Shown: piece after piece, positions 7,523 through 25,635 of the stretch
Position numbering within the stretch: position 1 is the first letter of the stretch
Layout: each line of letters opens with the position of its first letter
Assembly: GCA_016932255.1 (NCBI GenBank)
Contig: JAFGDE010000005.1
Coordinates: forward strand, 1-64,000
Direction of reading: 5' to 3'
DNA length: 64,000 nt
From: Candidatus Saganbacteria bacterium
GTDB taxonomy: Bacteria > Margulisbacteria > WOR-1 > O2-12-FULL-45-9
Notes under the pieces: model-generated
What the model was told of the DNA's origin: nothing
Databases searched by the model: none
The model's input: the letters and a program-made list of their open reading frames with translations, nothing else
Program-made: the position numbers and the translations under genes

Positions 7523-9824
7523 AAAGCTGCTGGTCATTACTTTTATTCTGTCAATCGGCCTGTTTCCTGCTACAGCTTTGACTTTTACCGTGACAAATTG
7601 CGGCCAGGCAGGCCCCGGGTCACTGCGTTATGAGGTCGATCAGGCCAACGCCAATCCGGGCGCGGATGCTATAGAGTTCAATATACCGACCACTGAAGCC
7701 GGGCTGACGACCGAAGCGGGTTATAACTGGTGGAGGATACCGTTCGATAATATTGATTCAACGATAGTCATAACCGGCGACGCAACGACGATCGATGGCA
7801 GCACCCAGCCTAAACCAGCCGGTTTCACCTGGCCGGCCGGGCCAGTGATCCAGCTGGGGGCCCTGGATGCCCTTTCTTATGACGGGATCAGGATCAGCGC
7901 AAATAACTGCCTGATCCGCAGCATCAATATGACAATGATGCCGCATGCTGGTTTTCAATTCGGTTTTGACGACGCGATCGAGATCAACGGCAACAATAAT
8001 ACGATATCCGGCTGTATATTAGGGCTAACCCCCAGCGGGGAAGGGGCCGCCCATGGCAATGTGAACCAGATACGCATCAGCGGCAGCGGTAATATTATAG
8101 GCGGCACGACCGCAGCGGCCAGAAATATTATCAGCCAGTCTTGGAGCGCCTGTATCTATGTCACTGGTGCCAATAACAGGATCATTGGCAATTATATCGG
8201 GACCGATCTTACCGGCACAAAGGATTATGGCTCAGCTTTAAGCAGCGGGGTCAGCTTGCTTGGCCCAAGCAACGAAGTGGGGGGAAGCCTGGAAACCGAA
8301 CGAAATATTATTTCAGGACATACGTATTTCGGCGTTTCCCTGAGCAGTTTAACTGCCGCATATAATAAGGTCAGGGGTAATTACATCGGCACGGACGTGA
8401 GCGGCAGCAACGCTATCAGTAATGGTGTTGGCATTGCTTTGAGCTCGCTGGCGCATTATAACCAGATCGGCGGGCAGGGACAATTTGACGGCAATGTTGT
8501 CGGTTTTAGCGATAATTCGCTTGATCCCCAGTTAGGAGTGGGCATCGGCTGTCTTGGCTCAGTTTATAATTACTTCCAGGGTAATTATGTCGGAGTTAAC
8601 CGGAGCGGGGGCGCAATACCGAACGATAGCATTGGTGTAGCTTTTGCCAGCGGCGCCAGTTATGAATCTTTTGGACCGGGCAATATAGTCAAGAACAGCG
8701 CCTCTTATGGCGTTTTTGTTTCCCCTGAATGTCAGTTTATACTGATCACTCAGAACACAATAGAGTCCAACGCCCTCGATGGCATATTTATTTCACCCGG
8801 AGCGAACAATAATATCGCTTACCCGGGGATCGCCACGGCGGAGTATTTTAATCATTCCGGCCAGGTGATCGCCAGCGGCACATCACCCGCCTCAGCAGTT
8901 ATCGAGTTCTTTATGGTGCCGGCAACGCCCGATCCCAGCGGCAGGGGGGAAGCCGCTTATTATCTTGGTTCAACCGAAGCGAACTCTTCCGGTATCTGGA
9001 GCGCCACTCTTGAAAGCCTGTCGCTTGGTGATACGATCACTGCTACATCATCGATTTATCTGAGCCCGGGCTATACTTCTGAGTTCGCGGAAAATTATAT
9101 CGTTGTGCAGGGGACAACTACCACAACTACGACCACGACAGCTACCACCACGATCACTGGCACAACAAGTACAACCACAACATCAACTACCACGACGACA
9201 ATTGACGGCCAGCCGCCTGAAGTGATAATGCTGATCGAAGGAGCGGCCATTAAAAGTTGTGATTATATCGGCAAACGCCCGGCAGTTGAAGCTGAGATCA
9301 CGGATAATACATCAATAGATGCCGGCTCGGTCAGGGCCTATATAGACGGACAGGAAAGTTCCTATATTACAACGGCTTTCAGCGGCCAGGCCATGGCTAT
9401 CCGTTTCATGCCCGCAGACGACCTGTCGGTCGGGGACCATATTCTCAAGGTCCTGGCCAATGACATTTACGGCAATGCCGGCTGGCAGGAGCTTAACGAA
9501 CTGGAAGTCTCATCTGAGAACGTCAGGGTGGTCAATGACGTGCTGGTCTCGCCTTCGACCTATACGGGAGGTAATGTCAGTCTCGCCTACACATTGAACA
9601 CGGATTCCGCCATCCGTTTGCATCTTATCGGGCCGGACGGGACCGTGCGCTGGACCAGGTCTTTCAGCGCCGGCAGCATGGGCGGCAAGGCCGGCTATAA
9701 TATTGTGGCCTTTAATGGCGTGACCGACCTGGCAGGCCAGCAATTAGGCAACGGCATTTACGTGATCATGCTGGTCGCTAACGGCCGAAACATCGGTAAA
9801 GGGCATCTGGTAGTCTTTGAATGA
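7515..9824 (+). CDS. Secreted beta-helix protein with Thr-rich linker and FlgD-like C-terminus
   Basis: The 769-residue protein is a shorter paralogue of the preceding protein and overlaps it by 8 bases, which indicates translational coupling. Signal peptide about 1-21; CSLREA-like start (NCGQAGPGSLRYEV); parallel beta-helix ~115-440 with NxIIGNYIGT-type coils. A small beta-sandwich follows (~455-533, GTSPASAVIEFF ... GYTSEFAE) that also occurs in the 1421-residue protein. A linker of almost pure Thr (about 535-567, DNA 9117-9200) precedes the shared ~200-residue C-terminal module (PPEV...; GGKAGYN, NGIYVIML, IGKGHLVVFE). The Thr linker may be a glycosylated spacer. The repeated C-terminal module may be an anchoring or secretion signal; its resemblance to FlgD/type IX-like sorting domains is only by pattern. 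Confidence 0.8.
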   Translation: MIKKLLVITFILSIGLFPATALTFTVTNCGQAGPGSLRYEVDQANANPGADAIEFNIPTTEAGLTTEAGYNWWRIPFDNIDSTIVITGDATTIDGSTQPKPAGFTWPAGPVIQLGALDALSYDGIRISANNCLIRSINMTMMPHAGFQFGFDDAIEINGNNNTISGCILGLTPSGEGAAHGNVNQIRISGSGNIIGGTTAAARNIISQSWSACIYVTGANNRIIGNYIGTDLTGTKDYGSALSSGVSLLGPSNEVGGSLETERNIISGHTYFGVSLSSLTAAYNKVRGNYIGTDVSGSNAISNGVGIALSSLAHYNQIGGQGQFDGNVVGFSDNSLDPQLGVGIGCLGSVYNYFQGNYVGVNRSGGAIPNDSIGVAFASGASYESFGPGNIVKNSASYGVFVSPECQFILITQNTIESNALDGIFISPGANNNIAYPGIATAEYFNHSGQVIASGTSPASAVIEFFMVPATPDPSGRGEAAYYLGSTEANSSGIWSATLESLSLGDTITATSSIYLSPGYTSEFAENYIVVQGTTTTTTTTTATTTITGTTSTTTTSTTTTTIDGQPPEVIMLIEGAAIKSCDYIGKRPAVEAEITDNTSIDAGSVRAYIDGQESSYITTAFSGQAMAIRFMPADDLSVGDHILKVLANDIYGNAGWQELNELEVSSENVRVVNDVLVSPSTYTGGNVSLAYTLNTDSAIRLHLIGPDGTVRWTRSFSAGSMGGKAGYNIVAFNGVTDLAGQQLGNGIYVIMLVANGRNIGKGHLVVFE

Positions 9825-10201
9825 CGAACATAAAAGGCATCGGCGTGGATATAATCGAGCTTGAACGCATCCGCGAGGCGGTCGAAACATACGGCGAGGC
9901 TTTTCTGAAGCGGGTCTACACGGAAAACGAGATCGCTTACTGCTGCCGCAGGAAGATTTACCGTATCCCTGAGCTGGCCGTGCGTTTTGCGGCCAAGGAA
10001 GCTTACTCCAAGGCGATCGGTCGCGGTATCAAAGGGTTTGGCCGGCCTAACAACGGCATTAACTGGCAGGATATCGAAATTATCAATAACCTGCACGGCA
10101 AACCCTTGCTTTCGCTCAATGGAATGGTCTCCGACAAGGCCCATGTCAGTTTATCTCATTCAAGGGATTATGCTATAGCAACGGTCTATGTTGAAGAGTA
10201 A
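9821..10201 (+). CDS. acpS: Holo-[acyl-carrier-protein] synthase
   Basis: This 126-residue enzyme transfers 4'-phosphopantetheine from coenzyme A to apo-ACP, activating it for fatty acid synthesis. The N-terminal GVDIIELERI carries the metal-binding Asp, and RFAAKEAYSKA carries the conserved Glu and Lys. SLSHSRDYAIATV is the usual C-terminal strand. Length is normal for bacterial AcpS. Its ATG overlaps the stop of the surface-protein gene (ATGA), and its end overlaps nnrD by 14 bases, so a housekeeping gene is translationally coupled to a surface-protein gene. The acpS-nnrD order is common in many bacteria. Confidence 0.95.
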   Translation: MTNIKGIGVDIIELERIREAVETYGEAFLKRVYTENEIAYCCRRKIYRIPELAVRFAAKEAYSKAIGRGIKGFGRPNNGINWQDIEIINNLHGKPLLSLNGMVSDKAHVSLSHSRDYAIATVYVEE

Positions 10202-11000
10202 AATCAGAAATTTATTGCCAAAACGGAAAGCCGGCACGCATAAGGGCGACTACGGCAGGGTCTTGATCGCTGCCGGGTCAAAAGGCATGACCGGCGCGGC
10301 GGTGCTGGCTTCCCGGGGCGCTCACCGCACCGGAGTCGGGCTGACCTATCTGGCTGTGCCTAAACCTATCCTGGATTATGTCGATGCCATGACTCCGGAG
10401 ATCATCACTCTGCCTTTCTCTGAGATCAAAAAGATCAAAGCTGATGCTTATGCTATTGGTCCGGGACTGCGTGTTTCACTTAAGACCAAGCAGCTGCTAA
10501 AAGAACTGGCCGCTTATCCAAAAACATTGGTCGTCGACGCTGACGCGCTCAATGTCATTGCTAAAGCTCCTGGTCTTATCAAAAAGACCAAAGCCTCACT
10601 GATCATGACGCCTCATCCTGGCGAGATGGCCCGTTTGCTCAAAAAGAGCACGGCATATATCCAGTCCAACCGTTTAAAAGCCGCTTGGGAAGCTGCCAAG
10701 AAGTTCAAATGCGTCATGGTCCTGAAAGGCAGCCGCACAGTCGTGGCCGATCCTCACGGCAAGACCTTTATCAATAATACCGGCAATCCCGGCATGGCTT
10801 CAGCCGGGGTGGGCGATATCCTGACGGGCATGATCGCCGGTCTGGCAGCCCAAGGGTTGTCCGCCTGGGATGCGGCCGTTGTCGGCGTTTATCTGCATGG
10901 CCTGGCCGGAGATCTGGCTGACAAGGATAAAGGCGAATATGGTATGATAGCATCAGATGTAGTGGAGAAGATCCCTTATGCCATACAGAGAAGTCGCTGA
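10188..11000 (+). CDS. nnrD: ADP-dependent NAD(P)H-hydrate dehydratase
   Basis: The 270-residue enzyme of the ribokinase-like fold repairs hydrated NAD(P)H at the cost of ADP. The glycine-rich AGSKGMTGAAVLASRGA near the start and GNPGMASAGVGDILTGMIAG near the C-terminus (catalytic GVGD region) identify it. Only the dehydratase domain is present; the NnrE epimerase domain that is often fused at the N-terminus is missing, and no separate nnrE is seen here. It overlaps acpS by 14 bases and mlaE by 23 bases. Confidence 0.93.
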   Translation: MLKSKIRNLLPKRKAGTHKGDYGRVLIAAGSKGMTGAAVLASRGAHRTGVGLTYLAVPKPILDYVDAMTPEIITLPFSEIKKIKADAYAIGPGLRVSLKTKQLLKELAAYPKTLVVDADALNVIAKAPGLIKKTKASLIMTPHPGEMARLLKKSTAYIQSNRLKAAWEAAKKFKCVMVLKGSRTVVADPHGKTFINNTGNPGMASAGVGDILTGMIAGLAAQGLSAWDAAVVGVYLHGLAGDLADKDKGEYGMIASDVVEKIPYAIQRSR

Positions 11001-11757
11001 AACAGTCGGCAACAGGATGATCGACATCCTGGAAGAGCTTGGCCGGATCACAGGACTGGCCGGAGCTGCCTTGCGCGACATAATCCGCGGCAAAATAAAC
11101 GCGAAACTAACGCTGGACCAGATGGTCAAGATCGGCGTTGATTCACTGCCCCTGGCGCTGATCACGGCGGCATTCATCGGCATGGTCTTTGCCGTGCAGA
11201 TCGCTTCCGAGTTCGTGCGTTTTGGCGCCGGCAAGTTCGTCGGCGGTGTCATGAGCATTGCCATGGCCAGGGAGCTGGGCCCGGCGGTCACCGGCATAGT
11301 CGTTGCCGCCAGGGTCGCGGCCTCGATCACTGCTGAGATCGGCACCATGAAGGTCTCCGAACAGGTCGACGCGCTGGAATCTTTAGGCGCCAGCCCGATC
11401 AGATACTTGGTCATTCCACGGCTGATCGCCACGACCCTGATGCTGCCGCTCTTGACCGTCTTGACCATAATCACCGGATTTTTCGGCGGCTATCTCGTGG
11501 CAGTCACGGTCAGTAAGATTAACGGCGTCCAGTATATGGAAACAGCCCAGAGCCTGGCCAGTCTCTGGGACGTTTACGGCGGCTTGATCAAAACAGCTGT
11601 TTTCGGCGTAATCATAGCCATTATTTCCTGTTATAAAGGCTTGACCACCAGGGGAGGGGCCAAAGGAGTGGGTGAGTCGACCACTTCTTCGGTCGTTATT
11701 ACTCTTATCAGCCTGTTCATTGTCAATTATTTCCTGTCGATCATTTTCTTTAAATGA
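10978..11757 (+). CDS. mlaE: MlaE-family ABC transporter permease
   Basis: The 259-residue integral membrane protein is the permease of an MCE-type phospholipid transporter and acts in the inner membrane with MlaF and MlaD. Several membrane segments are seen (starting ALITAAFIGMVFAVQIA). The conserved stretch MARELGPAVTGIVVAARVAA and the EIGTMKVSEQVDAL motif are diagnostic for MlaE (DUF140). The start overlaps nnrD by 23 bases; an internal ATG at 11017 is possible but has a weaker ribosome site. Its stop overlaps the mlaF start. Confidence 0.94.
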   Translation: MPYREVAETVGNRMIDILEELGRITGLAGAALRDIIRGKINAKLTLDQMVKIGVDSLPLALITAAFIGMVFAVQIASEFVRFGAGKFVGGVMSIAMARELGPAVTGIVVAARVAASITAEIGTMKVSEQVDALESLGASPIRYLVIPRLIATTLMLPLLTVLTIITGFFGGYLVAVTVSKINGVQYMETAQSLASLWDVYGGLIKTAVFGVIIAIISCYKGLTTRGGAKGVGESTTSSVVITLISLFIVNYFLSIIFFK

Positions 11758-15204: not shown

Positions 15205-15694
15205 GGCCCGCAGCCCGGGCCGGGGCATTAAACCACTTGAAAAACCCGCTAATTTCTATGTCGCATAATATATCTTATGTCAAGTTATGACCAGTTGATG
15301 ATTAGGTAGATTTTAGCTATTTTACGCCAAATTAAACACCACTAAATACTTATCCCCATTGGTTGTCTACAGCTGTTCTGGCGTTATTGGCTTATTGATG
15401 CCCTACACTATATATGGCGTTGTTTGAGAAATGACCGGTAATAATTTTTTCTTACGCACCCTATTACATGTTTAGCTCAAAGATCCAGGTCCCCCGGACC
15501 CAGCCATTTTTTTTATTGTATTCAAGGCTATGATCAGCTTTCATGCCTGAATCATCACCAGTTAGTCTATCTAGTGGTCAAAGTGCTAAATTGAGGCAAA
15601 ATGCGGGTTTTGACAGCTTGAGAAATTCGATTATAGCCGCGTTAGGATTTCCAGAGAAACCCAGGTAAGCTAACTCTTGAGTTGATTTTGCGGT
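15205..15694 (+). other. 490-bp non-coding gap between convergent genes
   Basis: This stretch lies between the end of the LptD-like gene (plus) and the end of the C39-like peptidase locus (minus). It is richer in A/T than the flanks. No reading frame with gene-like composition, tRNA-like cloverleaf or repeat seen elsewhere in the window was found. A GC-rich inverted stretch follows the LptD-like stop (about 15206-15226) and a weak terminator-like hairpin is at 15488-15514. The rest holds nothing I can identify. Confidence 0.6.
15488..15514 (+). terminator. Possible rho-independent terminator
   Basis: A short GC stem GGTCC-CCC-GGACC is followed after six bases by eight T residues. It lies between convergent genes, where a terminator is expected. 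The stem is short and the T-run is displaced, so the call is weak. Confidence 0.3.
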
Positions 15695-16621
15695 TTATGA
15701 GAACCAGGAGCTGACTTCGTCCCAGACGTCCTCAGCCGCGTCAGCGACCGTATTAGCGGCTTTTTCTGCAGCATAGAACGTGTCTTCAAGCCCGTCAACG
15801 ACCTGCAGCGTGTTCTTGAACGTGCTGGAGAGCTTATCAGACGGCAGATAAGTTTTAAACGCCGTGTCCTGGAACGTGCCCGGTTTGGACATGGCCATGT
15901 AATACCGATGGCCGCCAGGGATAATATTATTGTCCCAGAATTTGCTCTTGAAGTCCGATGCTGTCCAGCACTGGGTCGTGCTGCGGTTCGGGTTATTGAA
16001 ATAAATATGCGTGATCTAGCCGGAATCATTCTTTTTATAACCGGTCACGACCATCCAGTGCGCGCGCTTGGCATTATCAATGTAATTTGATATGGACGAA
16101 TTGCTGCCGCCGCCGTAAATGCCCAGGGTCATTACCGGTATACCTTTGTCTACCAGAGCGGCCAGATCGCTCAAACTGCCATAGTTCTCCTGCCTGACCG
16201 TCAGCCCCTTATTTCTGACCTTTTGCTTGAGCGCCAGCGGTCCGTGCCCTACTGTATCGGATTCGAACATATTATGGTAATTGCCAGGATTAACACCCAG
16301 ATACTGCATGATCATGGCCAGGGACGTCGGACCGCACCCATTGGAGTTCTGGACCAAATTTGAAACATTAAGTTTATAATCGGTCCTGGGCGAAACCTGC
16401 AGCTGCGGTAATTGGGGTTTAACCTCATGCACCCGGCTGAAAATGCTCTTTGATATTGATGAATTGGGCTGCCTGGCGGCTACGGTTTTAAAGGCGTTAT
16501 TGAACGAAAAGCTGGTCGCACTTAATTGTTTGGTTATCTTTGCGCTGGTCTTTTTGATCTCTGTGGTCCTGGGACTGAATGAAGCTGAAAATCTCTGGAA
16601 AGCGCGGCTAAAACTGGCCAT
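15695..16621 (-). pseudogene. C39-like cysteine peptidase interrupted by in-frame amber codon
   Basis: Reading from ATG at 16621 (AAGGAGGAG nine bases upstream), 201 codons lead to TAG at 16018-16016. The same frame then stays open for 106 more codons to TAA at 15695. The upstream part has a Ser-rich basic N-terminus without signal peptide, then NGCGPTSLAMIMQYLG (catalytic Cys, about residue 112) and AHWMVVTGY (catalytic His), typical of Peptidase_C39_2. The downstream part continues naturally: ITHIYFNNPN (expected third catalytic residue), then W-x-x-x-DF-x-x-x-FW and a helical tail. So the amber separates the triad. TAG also ends genuine genes here (1236, 2107), so a recoded genetic code is unlikely. 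A CAG-to-TAG change, stop suppression or a consensus error could explain it. Confidence 0.8.
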
Positions 16622-16723
16622 CTAAAGAGCTCCTCCTTATATATAATGTAATTGGGAGTCTGCACTAGTATTATCGCAGAAAATGGCCGAAAACTTTTGT
16701 CTTAAAGCTGCTTTTTGCCTAAA

Positions 16724-18019
16724 CTAAGCCAAACCAAGCCGCTTAAAGATCGTTTCCACGTTCCTGAGGTAGTAATTGATGTCGAACGCCTGCTCGATCT
16801 CTTTCTCTGAGAGATGTTTTCTGGCCAGCTTGTCATTCAAGACCATTTCTTTAAGATGCTTGCCCGAGGCCCGGGCCTTCATGGCCGCTGTTTGGACGAT
16901 CTGATAAGCCTCCTCGCGGGTCAGCCCTTTATCAGTTAAAGCCAGTAATAACCTTTGCGAGAATGTCAAACCCTGCGACTTCTCGATATTTTGCTTCATC
17001 TTTTCCTGATAAACGACCAGGTTATCGATGATCCAGATCATCTTCTGCAGCATATAATCGACCAGGGTCGTTGAATCAGGCACGCAAACACGTTCGGTCG
17101 ATGAGTGGCTAATATCCCGTTCGTGCCAGAGAGCAACATTCTCAAAGGCGACCTGGGCATTGGCCCGCACAATACGCGAAAGACCGCAGATGCGCTCGCA
17201 GGTAATCGGGTTCTTCTTGTGCGGCATGGCTGAAGACCCTTTCTGCCCTTTCTTGAACGGCTCCTCAACTTCGCCTATTTCAGTTTTCTGCAGTCCCCTG
17301 ACCTCCAGAGCGATCTTTTCCAGGGTAGCGGCAACGACCGCCAAGGTCGACATATATTCAGCGTGGCGGTCGCGCTGGATCACCTGGTTCGACACGGATA
17401 CAGGCTCAAGCCCCAGTTTCTTACAGGCGAATTCCTCGATCTTGGGATCGATGTTCGAATATGTGCCTACCGCGCCGGATATCTGGCCGACACTGATCGT
17501 CTTTATAGCCGCTTCCATGCGCTCCTTGTTGCGTTCCATCTCCTTGAGCCATAAAGCGAACTTAAGCCCAAGTGTCATTGGTTCAGCGTGCACGCCATGC
17601 GAACGCCCCATCATCACCGTGTCACGGTACTTCCTGGCCATCTTTTTCAGGACCTTGATGAACTCATCCACATCCTTAAGAATGATATCGGCCGCATCGC
17701 GCATGACCAGGGAGAGGGAGGTATCAACAACATCCGAGCTGGTCATGCCCATGTGGATATAACGGCTTTCAGGGCCGATATTCTCCGCCACCGCGGTCAG
17801 GAAAGCGATCACATCATGGTCGACCTTCTTCTCGATCTCGTTTATCCGTTTGATCGAGAAATTGGCCTTGCTTTTGATCTTTTTCAAGGCAGGCCCCGGT
17901 ATCTTGCCCAGTTTGTTCCATGCCTCGCAAGCTGCCAGTTCGACCATCAGCCAGGTCTTGAACTTATGTTCTTCCGACCAGATCTCCCTCATTTTAGGTA
18001 AAGAATATCTATCTATCAT
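16724..18019 (-). CDS. purB: Adenylosuccinate lyase
   Basis: The 431-residue enzyme of the fumarase/aspartase superfamily acts twice in purine synthesis: it splits SAICAR into AICAR and fumarate, and adenylosuccinate into AMP and fumarate. The signature GSSAMPHKKNP (about residues 262-272) and MGMTSSDVVDTSL are present; GRSHGVHAEPMT holds a catalytic His. Length is normal. It lies upstream of the broken C39 gene, with about 100 bases between, and downstream of ispG with a hairpin-repeat junction. Confidence 0.97.
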   Translation of the reverse strand: MIDRYSLPKMREIWSEEHKFKTWLMVELAACEAWNKLGKIPGPALKKIKSKANFSIKRINEIEKKVDHDVIAFLTAVAENIGPESRYIHMGMTSSDVVDTSLSLVMRDAADIILKDVDEFIKVLKKMARKYRDTVMMGRSHGVHAEPMTLGLKFALWLKEMERNKERMEAAIKTISVGQISGAVGTYSNIDPKIEEFACKKLGLEPVSVSNQVIQRDRHAEYMSTLAVVAATLEKIALEVRGLQKTEIGEVEEPFKKGQKGSSAMPHKKNPITCERICGLSRIVRANAQVAFENVALWHERDISHSSTERVCVPDSTTLVDYMLQKMIWIIDNLVVYQEKMKQNIEKSQGLTFSQRLLLALTDKGLTREEAYQIVQTAAMKARASGKHLKEMVLNDKLARKHLSEKEIEQAFDINYYLRNVETIFKRLGLA

Positions 18020-22615: not shown

Positions 22616-24538
22616 TCATTCCTCCTTGCGAAAAAAAGGATCAAAAATGAAGACCAGAAGAGCGCCGACCAGAACACCTATGACCAATCCGTTAAAGGTC
22701 CTGATCAAAGAGATGATCAACGGTGTGTGGATGTGCGAAAAAGTATTGAGCACCGAGATCGGCGCTATGGTACCGAGCGCCGCCAGCAGCCAGAGCCAGT
22801 GTTTTCTCTGGCGCAGCATGGCCAGGGCCGCCAAGTATAAAAGCGGATAGCCGATAATGAATTCCTTGGTCCGCGGCCTGATAAAGAAAAGAGCCTCCAT
22901 AAAATTCCTGAAATATTTCTCAAAGACAGGCACCGGCAGGACAAAATTCCCTGACCTTGCCAGATAAACGAACAGTCCGCCCATCACGCCGACTCCCAGC
23001 AGGATGGTGGCAAGCTTGACCCTGGTATTGAGGAAGTACAGTAAACGGTCCTTGAGGCTGCCAGTGCCCATTTTAATGATAAAGTAAAAAGCCACGACCA
23101 TCACCGGCAGGAGCAAGGCGAGCTTAACCCCCTGGAATGTCTCGACTCCCAGCATAAATCTGTGGTCGGCCATTATGCCAATCAACAGGAATACGCCGAC
23201 CATAGCTTCAGCCAGGACGTTGAGCACGATCAGGGTGGCGTCGAGCACAACAAGCGAAGGCCGCTGCTCGCGGCTCAGGCTCGAGATCACTGCCAGCGAA
23301 GGGAAGATGACCGCGGTAGCCAGCGCCAGCAGCTTCTGCAGCTGGATCAGCGGCAGGAGCAGCCCAGCCAAATAAAGCAGCGCTGCGGCCAGCGCGACCA
23401 GCAGGTACATGATAACGATGTGCAATCTGATGAAATAATTCAGCAGAAAGACCGCGCCGATAATAATGCCGATACCGAGGAAGAACAACTGCCAGTCAAG
23501 CACTCTGACCGGCGGCACGCTTTGCGGCTGACCAACGATGAAACCGGCTTTGTTCAATCCATCTTTGACCTGGCCGAAGAACTTCAGATTATAAGCTACT
23601 GGATAAGCATCGATCTGCGGCGGCAGGAACGGCCGCAGATAGATCAGCCGCACTTTGCGCTCGCGCACTGCTCTGACAAATCGGTCAATGACCTCATCTT
23701 TGTTCAATTTTTTAAGCTCTTCCTTGGGCACGCTGTGGACACGAATGACAGCCAGGTCCATCAGGCGCCTTAGTTGCTTATCGCCGTCCTGCTTGACTAT
23801 CTCAATATAGCCGTATTTAAGACCGTTCTTCTTAAGCGAATAGCTTAAAGCCTTCAGCGCTTCTGGATAACCCAGTATCTCTTCACCTTCAAAGATGACC
23901 ACATCATGAGCGGCAAGGTCGTTGATCTTAAGGCCGACGTTGCCCAGATGATAACGGGGATCGTTCCAGATCCGCGGGATTATCCTCAGCCCTTTTTTTG
24001 TCAAATAGTCGACCTGATCCTCAGGCAGCCCCAAGCCGAGGCCGCGCAGTTCCTCTTCAGCCTCATTTATCTCCATGACTTCGCGGCCGAGAAAACCGAT
24101 ATTATTCTCTCCTACAACCCATTTCAACTGATTGTAGACGCGCTTGCGCACTTTATCATCGGGCGCGTATATATATGTTTTACCCAGCTGGATCCGGCCC
24201 TGTTTGGCCAAAGGCTTGAGTTCGGGCAGCACATCCTTCAGTCTGATGATGCCGCTGCCTTTAGCGTAATATAGCCTGCCGGCGGCCGCGGCATCCGGCA
24301 GGGTCTCTTCGAACAAGCCGATAGAGACGATGCCCTGCTCCTTCATCTCATCAAGTATCGGTCCGAGCGGCTTCTTTTCAAAGGCCGCGACCTTGCGCAT
24401 ATCGTTCAGATCAACGCATAGCTCGACAGTTCTGTCCTGCAGTTCAACGAAATACCGCGTATAGCCCAGATAGCCGCCCAGCATTACGCTGGCGGTCAGT
24501 GAGATGATCAACAGGCCCTTGCCGATCTTGTCCAGCAT
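22616..24538 (-). CDS. DUF5693-family membrane protein
   Basis: The 640-residue protein has one N-terminal membrane segment (about 8-25), a large extracytoplasmic domain (about 26-345) and a dense run of about ten membrane segments to the C-terminus (about 350-630). This matches the architecture of DUF5693 proteins, which are regularly found beside csaB. Its ATG overlaps the prfB stop (TAATG). A role in exporting or polymerising the pyruvylated wall polymer is plausible from context and topology but is not known. Confidence 0.85.
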   Translation of the reverse strand: MLDKIGKGLLIISLTASVMLGGYLGYTRYFVELQDRTVELCVDLNDMRKVAAFEKKPLGPILDEMKEQGIVSIGLFEETLPDAAAAGRLYYAKGSGIIRLKDVLPELKPLAKQGRIQLGKTYIYAPDDKVRKRVYNQLKWVVGENNIGFLGREVMEINEAEEELRGLGLGLPEDQVDYLTKKGLRIIPRIWNDPRYHLGNVGLKINDLAAHDVVIFEGEEILGYPEALKALSYSLKKNGLKYGYIEIVKQDGDKQLRRLMDLAVIRVHSVPKEELKKLNKDEVIDRFVRAVRERKVRLIYLRPFLPPQIDAYPVAYNLKFFGQVKDGLNKAGFIVGQPQSVPPVRVLDWQLFFLGIGIIIGAVFLLNYFIRLHIVIMYLLVALAAALLYLAGLLLPLIQLQKLLALATAVIFPSLAVISSLSREQRPSLVVLDATLIVLNVLAEAMVGVFLLIGIMADHRFMLGVETFQGVKLALLLPVMVVAFYFIIKMGTGSLKDRLLYFLNTRVKLATILLGVGVMGGLFVYLARSGNFVLPVPVFEKYFRNFMEALFFIRPRTKEFIIGYPLLYLAALAMLRQRKHWLWLLAALGTIAPISVLNTFSHIHTPLIISLIRTFNGLVIGVLVGALLVFIFDPFFRKEE

Positions 24539-25635
24539 TATTTTGCCCCTTTCCTGAGCATGCCTTCGATAAAAGGATCGATATCGCCGTCAATCACTCG
24601 CTGCACATCGCCGACCTCGACCCCTGTACGGTGGTCCTTGACCAGTGTATAAGGCTGGAAGACATAGGAGCGGATCTGGCTGCCCCACTCGATCTTTTTC
24701 TTCTCTCCGGCCAGGTCCTCGATCTTGTCCTTCTGTTGTTCCAGCATCATCTCATAAAGCCTGGCTTTAAGCAGGCGCATTGCCGCTTCGCGATTGGCGT
24801 GCTGGGAACGATCCGTTTGGCTTTGGGTAACGATACCGGTAGGCAGGTGAGTGATCCTGACGGCCGAACTGACCTTATTGACGTTCTGGCCGCCCGGGCC
24901 GGAAGCCCGATAAGTGTCGATCCTCAGATCATTGGGATTTATCTCCACTTTAATGTCCTCTTCGATCTCCGGGATGACCTCAACAGCCACGAACGAGGTA
25001 TGGCGTTTGCCTTCCGAAGAAAAAGGAGAGATCCTGACCAGCCGATGGATGCCTGATTCGTTCTTGAGGTAGCCGAAAGCATACATCCCTGAAATGATCA
25101 GGGTCACGCTCTTTATGCCTGCTTCTTCTCCGTAGGAAATATCCGGCATTTCGACCTTAAACTCTTTACTTTCTGCCCAGCGGCTGTACATGCGCAGCAA
25201 GATCTGGCCCCAATCCTGCGCATCTGTGCCGCCGGCACCCGCATTGATCGAGAGTATAGCATTGTTCTTATCGTATTCGCCACCCAGTAAAGCGGCCAGT
25301 TCCAGCTCTTGGGTCTTTTTACTTAGTTCAGAGAATTCACGGCGTAGTTCGGCTTCATCTTCGTCCTTGGCCATCGCCAGCAAGGTAATGAGATCATCAC
25401 TGCCGCTGACCAATTGCCGGTAGGTCGTGATCTCGCGTTCCAGTGCCTTTTTTTCCTGCATCAGCTTCCTGGCCCTGTCCTGGTCCTGCCAAAGTTTCGG
25501 GTCAGCGACCTCAGCCTCGATCTCAGCCAGACGTTTTTGCTTGACCTCAACCTTAAGCAAAGCATGCAGATCTTTGGCCTTTTCCTTCAGTTTATTCAAT
25601 TCCAGCTTAAATTCGTCAAGCATGATATTCGGCAA
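24538..25635 (-). CDS. prfB: Peptide chain release factor 2
   Basis: The 365-residue release factor recognises UAA and UGA. The peptidyl-tRNA hydrolysis motif is in ASGPGGQNVNKVSSAVRI, and the anticodon-like tripeptide is SPF (RISPFSSEGKRH), which marks RF2. The frame is continuous from MPNIMLDEFK, so the programmed +1 frameshift that controls many prfB genes is absent. A hairpin-repeat pair separates it from secA upstream. Confidence 0.97.
   Translation of the reverse strand: MPNIMLDEFKLELNKLKEKAKDLHALLKVEVKQKRLAEIEAEVADPKLWQDQDRARKLMQEKKALEREITTYRQLVSGSDDLITLLAMAKDEDEAELRREFSELSKKTQELELAALLGGEYDKNNAILSINAGAGGTDAQDWGQILLRMYSRWAESKEFKVEMPDISYGEEAGIKSVTLIISGMYAFGYLKNESGIHRLVRISPFSSEGKRHTSFVAVEVIPEIEEDIKVEINPNDLRIDTYRASGPGGQNVNKVSSAVRITHLPTGIVTQSQTDRSQHANREAAMRLLKARLYEMMLEQQKDKIEDLAGEKKKIEWGSQIRSYVFQPYTLVKDHRTGVEVGDVQRVIDGDIDPFIEGMLRKGAK

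What the first reader, a model, noticed from the sequence alone, without database searches (positions are those of the whole stretch)
15695..16621. C39-like peptidase split by one in-frame TAG between its catalytic residues
The frame upstream of TAG has the Cys and His of a C39-like peptidase, and the same frame downstream has 106 codons with the expected continuation. Amber replaced one codon (probably CAG) exactly between His and the third catalytic position. TAG is a normal stop in other genes here. The downstream part shows no further decay, so the change is recent, is suppressed, or is a base error. No signal peptide is seen, which is odd for such peptidases.
Basis: seen in the sequence. 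Interest (0 to 1): 0.55.

Follow-up and report, generated by a model that had tools for sequence, protein, structure and literature searches.

The report
Peptidase gene cut by nonsense codon
A protein-cutting enzyme gene in an uncultured bacterium is interrupted by a single stop codon that its intact relatives lack; it is most likely a very recent, ordinary gene inactivation (or a base error), not a new decoding trick.

Summary
The gene lies on the minus strand (16621 to 15695), has one in-frame TAG at 16018-16016 (codon 202), and continues in frame for 106 codons that match relatives. The genome belongs to the WOR-1/Saganbacteria class. Four intact full-length orthologs exist there (47-65% identity); at the TAG column they carry Lys or Asn, not Gln. 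The TAG falls after His188 and before the third catalytic position (Asn210, inferred), cutting off the last strands of the papain-type fold. No decay is seen after the TAG (22 of 25 conserved columns kept). TAG is a normal stop here (64 of 323 coding-like ends in a 22.5% genome sample), and this is the only end in that sample with an unexplained coding continuation. RF1 and RF2 are present; none of 42 tRNA matches reads UAG; PylD gives no match over cut-off. None of nine other family genomes holds an intact copy; one has a relic. Best reading: recent nonsense mutation, with a base error the main rival. Intact relatives also lack a clear signal peptide, so that is a subfamily trait.

The parts
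16019..16621 (-). Translated 5' part of the C39-like peptidase gene, 201 codons: N-terminal tail (1-83, poorly conserved), papain-type core with Cys96 and His188
   Evidence: (PF13529 46.8 bits)
16016..16018 (-). In-frame TAG, codon 202; the four intact relatives have Lys or Asn in this column
15698..16015 (-). 106 codons in the same frame after the TAG: third catalytic position (Asn210, inferred), last core strands, C-terminal helical tail; intact in sequence but probably not translated
15695..15697 (-). TAG that ends the full-length frame
16632..16638 (-). AAGGAGG, ribosome-binding-site-like, 10 bases before the ATG (seen in sequence, not tested)
16724..18019 (-). purB (adenylosuccinate lyase: PF00206 224.6 bits, PF10397 85.1 bits), neighbour upstream; the same order and orientation occurs in G019 (L004)
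15205..15669 (.). Stretch downstream of the gene without an ORF of 80 codons or more; no terminator-like site found

Best explanation
A C39-like (papain-fold) peptidase gene, present in a minority of WOR-1/Saganbacteria genomes, has been inactivated very recently by one nonsense substitution. Ribosomes start at the ATG at 16621, RF1 ends synthesis at codon 202, and the 201-residue product lacks the third catalytic residue and the last strands of the core, so it should neither fold fully nor cut. The 106 codons behind are untranslated; the first in-frame ATG, GTG or TTG lies behind 39 further codons, past the third catalytic position, so no useful restart is available. The change is so young (or segregates only in part of the population) that no further decay has built up. 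Shown: the sequence facts, intact orthologs, lack of decay, normal TAG use, no suppressor tRNA found. Inferred: that the substitution is real, that the product is inactive, and which residue is third in the catalytic set.
For: Four intact full-length orthologs with no stop inside in four other genomes of the class. Constraint after the TAG equals that before it: own keeps 22 of 25 columns identical in the other four after the TAG and 41 of 45 in the core before it; pN/pS against the closest relative 0.25 after, 0.28 before. A neutral simulation allows about 0.1 substitutions per site at most since the TAG (joint probability 0.067 at 0.1, 0.012 at 0.15). TAG ends 64 of 323 coding-like frames. 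RF1 matches TIGR00019 at 529.8 bits, cut-off 423.25. The gene is dispensable in this family: 0 of 9 other family genomes has an intact copy and one, G007, holds a relic of about 23 residues between stops (E 7.6e-6). Short-lived in-frame stops are reported as common in bacteria (PMC7918605; abstract and part 1 of 2 of the Results read).
Against: No reads and no other genome of the genus, so a base error in one assembled genome fits equally well in sequence terms. Full retention after the TAG is also what suppression would give. pN/pS against more distant relatives is higher after the TAG than before it (0.41 against 0.29 with L004, 0.43 against 0.35 with L005), though two intact copies show the same (L003-L004 0.50 against 0.34), so I read it as a looser tail. 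Family absence is weakened by completeness of 71-95% in the nine genomes. The G007 relic does not lie beside that genome's purB (different contigs).
Confidence: 0.6

Rival explanations
1. Base error or minority-strain base in the assembled consensus; the real gene is intact and makes the full-length peptidase.
For: The rest of the frame is open and conserved; the genome is a draft of 31 contigs at 89.86% completeness, presumably assembled from a metagenome like its named relatives (inference); no second sequence of this genus is held.
Against: In 375,689 bases sampled no other unexplained in-frame stop was found among 323 coding-like ends, so the assembly is not rich in such errors (frameshift errors were not counted); a substitution error is less usual than an indel in many consensus sequences (recalled).
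Confidence: 0.28
2. The stop is read through or suppressed, giving a small amount of full-length peptidase: a low-expression switch.
For: No decay after the TAG; in-frame stops in genes with dN/dS below 1 have been reported in bacteria (PMC7918605).
Against: 42 tRNA matches (41 over the Rfam cut-off): 39 typed by ARAGORN plus 3 read by eye from the loop (Ser CGA, partial Ala CGC, weak Gln CTG); none reads UAG. RF1 present. No PylD over cut-off. No unusual RNA structure after the TAG (z -0.86). TAG ends many genes, which general suppression would extend. None of the four intact relatives has the stop. About 10% of the genome is missing, so a missed tRNA is possible.
Confidence: 0.06
3. The 201-residue product is a functional short protein (for example a binding decoy) and the rest is a dying tail.
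For: A start, a ribosome-binding-site-like sequence and a clean 201-codon frame exist.
Against: No relative ends here: the four are 297-324 residues. 22 columns after the TAG are identical in all five. The cut falls between two neighbouring strands of the core in the model of an intact relative, so folding is doubtful.
Confidence: 0.04

Closest known systems
Bacterial genes with in-frame nonsense codons of short persistence (Belinky et al. 2021, PMC7918605)
   Same: Single in-frame TAG, downstream part conserved, short evolutionary age
   Different: Only one genome here; the paper's main set rests on stops shared by two or more species, which cannot be shown for this one
Peptidase_C39_2 (PF13529) papain-fold peptidases
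   Same: Profile match over cut-off; Cys, His and Asn/Asp order; fold match of an intact relative's model to C39 peptidase domains (ComA 3k8u and 5xe9, TM by target 0.80-0.81; best E-value PCAT1 8vp5; also staphopains and bacterial papain-like toxin domains)
   Different: No transporter domain, no clear signal peptide; poorly predicted N-terminal tail and helical C-terminal tail; in this window the third catalytic position is beyond a stop
Intact orthologs in WOR-1/Saganbacteria (L003, L004, L005, L006)
   Same: Same full-length architecture, 47-65% identity; G019 (L004) shares the purB neighbour
   Different: No stop codon inside

Membership tests
Peptidase_C39_2 (PF13529) | Profile score over the curated cut-off | tested here: met
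   201-aa part 46.8 bits against 24; four relatives 38.4-50.8 bits
Peptidase_C39_2 (PF13529) | Complete catalytic set (Cys, His, Asp/Asn) in the product | tested here: not met
   Cys96 and His188 before the TAG, third position (Asn210, inferred from the FN(N/D)PN motif) after it; so the product as translated is not a complete member, the frame as a whole is
Peptidase C39 transporter domain (bacteriocin-processing) | Fused to an ABC transporter | tested here: not met
   Frame of 308 codons, relatives 297-324 residues, no transporter domain among Pfam matches
Recent pseudogene by nonsense mutation | Intact orthologs exist and the stop is private to this genome | tested here: met
   Four intact copies in 30 other class genomes, none with a stop inside
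Recent pseudogene by nonsense mutation | Stop present in the organism's reads | not testable with these tools
   No reads held
UAG recoding or suppression (suppressor tRNA, pyrrolysine) | A tRNA reading UAG or the Pyl pathway | tested here: not met
   None of 42 tRNA matches; PylD at best 20.5 bits against cut-off 150.05; over the cut-off in 1 of 14 control genomes, the call does not say which. Genome 89.86% complete.
UAG recoding or suppression (suppressor tRNA, pyrrolysine) | UAG not used as an ordinary stop | tested here: not met
   64 of 323 coding-like ends are TAG

The most novel reading that the evidence does not exclude
The TAG is a kept low-level switch: rare read-through by near-cognate tRNAs yields a trace of active, unexported C39-like peptidase, and selection on that trace keeps the last 106 codons intact.
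Probability: 0.05. Interest if true: 0.45.

Novelty: new member of a known kind. Interest (0 to 1): 0.12.

Why it matters
As a recent nonsense mutation it is an ordinary event; it adds one case of ongoing loss of a C39-like peptidase without a clear signal peptide (a second genome of the same family has only a relic). It would matter more only if several genomes shared the stop while the tail stayed under selection, which would point to regulated read-through in an uncultured lineage.

Tried and rejected
Decayed copies behind purB in the family: in nine genomes the stretch behind purB was scanned with a profile of the four intact orthologs (stretch lengths 80 to 1,509 bases, two of nine under 300). 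Only L071 (G006) gave a weak match (E 0.007), to a separate 193-aa ORF without the catalytic motifs; I treat it as chance or unresolved and do not count it as a relic.

A first codon-usage scan for interrupted genes had thresholds that missed the finding itself; I loosened them and used the other five frames as control. The thresholds were therefore tuned so that the known case is found. One outlier, a TAG after 559 residues of carB, looked like a second interruption but is followed by a DUF167 gene; the three other outliers are followed by Mur ligase, nucleotidyl transferase and PmbA/TldD genes.

Special recoding structure after the TAG: none. The out-of-frame ORF 15670-16029 (119 aa, Arg-rich) starts over the TAG; it was not searched and is taken as chance. 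Sequence search of solved structures with the family profile: 0 hits up to E 0.1. Literature: three searches; one paper used. The PF12385 (Peptidase_C70) match of the read-through frame is under its cut-off (18.5 against 19) and absent from the four relatives at E 0.01, so it is not used.

Synonymous sites are near saturation between these genomes, so uncorrected pN/pS is given and is rough.

Full report
What is there. The finding lies on the minus strand. From an ATG at 16621, preceded by AAGGAGG (16638-16632), a frame runs 201 codons to TAG at 16018-16016 and then, without any other interruption, 106 codons to a second TAG at 15697-15695. The first part matches PF13529 Peptidase_C39_2 up to profile position 133 of 143; the frame read through the TAG reaches 143 of 143, at the same bit score. 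So the stop sits inside the domain, after His188 and before the FNNPN motif whose second Asn (210; Asp in L004) I take as the third catalytic position. That assignment is inferred from the motif, not tested.

Which organism. The window is part of contig C14 (95,689 bases) of a 1.67-Mb genome in 31 contigs. They are placed in the same class as the window's genome, so the window comes from the WOR-1/Saganbacteria class.

Relatives. Of 57 genomes searched, the own one included, 6 had a match to the read-through frame: own, four intact full-length orthologs (G025 65%, G019 56%, G024 48%, G026 47%), and a short fragment in G007. A profile search of the 31 genomes held of the class, own included, found the same five long copies, the G007 fragment, and more distant domain matches in G000, G002 and G010; of 74 genomes held of the phylum, the 43 outside the class had none. 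In G019 the gene also lies beside purB in the same orientation, as in the window; in the three other loci purB is not among the listed ORFs (loci of about 3.7 kb).

Decay or not. In the core before the TAG own keeps 41 of 45 columns that are identical in the other four; after it, 22 of 25. Leaving out each other genome in turn gives 41 of 42 to 51 and 22 of 23 to 29 (the numerators are equal by construction). pN/pS against the closest relative L003 is 0.28 before and 0.25 after; against L004 0.29 and 0.41, against L005 0.35 and 0.43; the intact pair L003-L004 shows 0.34 and 0.50, so the rise with distance is a looser tail common to the family. The frame score after the TAG is coding-like (27.4 in frame over all 106 codons, negative in the shifted frames over the first 40 codons). 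A Jukes-Cantor simulation of neutral drift from the moment of the TAG gives a joint probability (no new stop, at most 3 of 25 columns lost) of 0.39 at 0.05 substitutions per site, 0.067 at 0.1, 0.012 at 0.15. So the stop is young relative to the separation of these genomes, whose synonymous sites are near saturation.

Is TAG special in this genome? In the window plus the rest of the contig plus 14 stretches of 20 kb (375,689 bases, 22.5% of the genome), 323 frames with coding-like codon use end in TAA 137, TGA 122, TAG 64. In 32 of them the same frame goes on with coding-like sequence. In 27 of these a start codon follows within 5 codons (taken as ordinary next genes, not looked at singly); in four it follows after 10, 13, 14 and 21 codons, and the continuation holds domains of other genes: DUF167, PmbA/TldD, nucleotidyl transferase, Mur ligase. 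Only the finding has 39 codons with no start although those very codons are conserved. The thresholds of this scan were loosened after a first version missed the known case.

Suppression. The Rfam tRNA search of the own genome gives 42 matches, 41 over the cut-off. ARAGORN types 39, none reading UAG; the three others read as Ser CGA, a partial Ala CGC and a weak Gln CTG by their loops, by eye. RF1 is present and RF2 lies in the window at 24538-25635. PylD gives no match over its cut-off. No unusual RNA fold follows the TAG. The genome is 89.86% complete, so a missed tRNA remains possible.

Loss elsewhere in the family. None of the nine other genomes of the family has an intact copy (completeness 71-95%). 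G007 has a relic of about 23 residues covering the FNNPN...WTASDF part, in a frame closed on both sides by stops; it is not on the contig of that genome's purB. So the gene has been lost in this family at least once independently of the finding.

Structure. An AlphaFold2 model of the intact relative L003 (5 sequences, mean pLDDT 67.6; core mostly well predicted, both tails poorly) shows the papain-type core at about 70-235; the cut would fall between strands 176-186 and 192-198, removing the last three core strands and the C-terminal helices. Foldseek's top matches are C39 peptidase domains of transporters and staphopains; bacterial papain-like toxin domains follow. These are general matches of the fold and name no function.

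Signal peptide. The most hydrophobic 13-residue stretch in the first 57 residues scores 0.37 (own) and 0.72, 0.94, 1.18 and 1.78 (relatives; L004 is borderline) on the Kyte-Doolittle scale, against 2.68 for the C39-type paralog L059 of the same genome. The lack of a clear signal peptide is thus largely a property of the subfamily, and no evidence about the stop. No dedicated signal-peptide program was available.

Judgement. A recent nonsense mutation is best (0.6), a base error or minority variant second (0.28), read-through (0.06) and a functional short protein (0.04) unlikely. In-frame stops that persist briefly are reported as widespread in bacterial genes (PMC7918605; abstract and part 1 of 2 of the Results read). 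Interest is low.

Noticed in passing
L079 (G000:C22:20001-40000), 9792-11471 minus: carB N-terminal half only (559 aa, matches positions 1-541 of 1058 of NF003671), ending in TAG and followed by a DUF167 gene: the large subunit of carbamoyl-phosphate synthase seems split or truncated in this genome; the other half was not sought.
   Followed up: partly
L059 (G000:C6), 1243-2007 minus: A second C39-type peptidase with a hydrophobic N-terminal stretch, in the same genome; matches PF13529 at 59.2 bits.
   Followed up: partly
L007 (G007:C2), about 1500-1570 minus: Short relic of the same peptidase (CYFNNPNQSTAQWWTASDFINRF) between stops, in a stretch without a long ORF in that frame.
   Followed up: yes
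L071 (G006), 836-1417 minus: A 193-aa Ser/Thr-rich ORF behind purB, the place where the window has the C39 gene; weak profile match (E 0.007), origin unresolved.
   Followed up: partly
L003-L006 and window 15698-16015, C-termini: The four intact orthologs and the window frame share a C-terminal (L/W)F(S/A) ending and a conserved Tyr and Glu in the tail, of unknown role.
   Followed up: no
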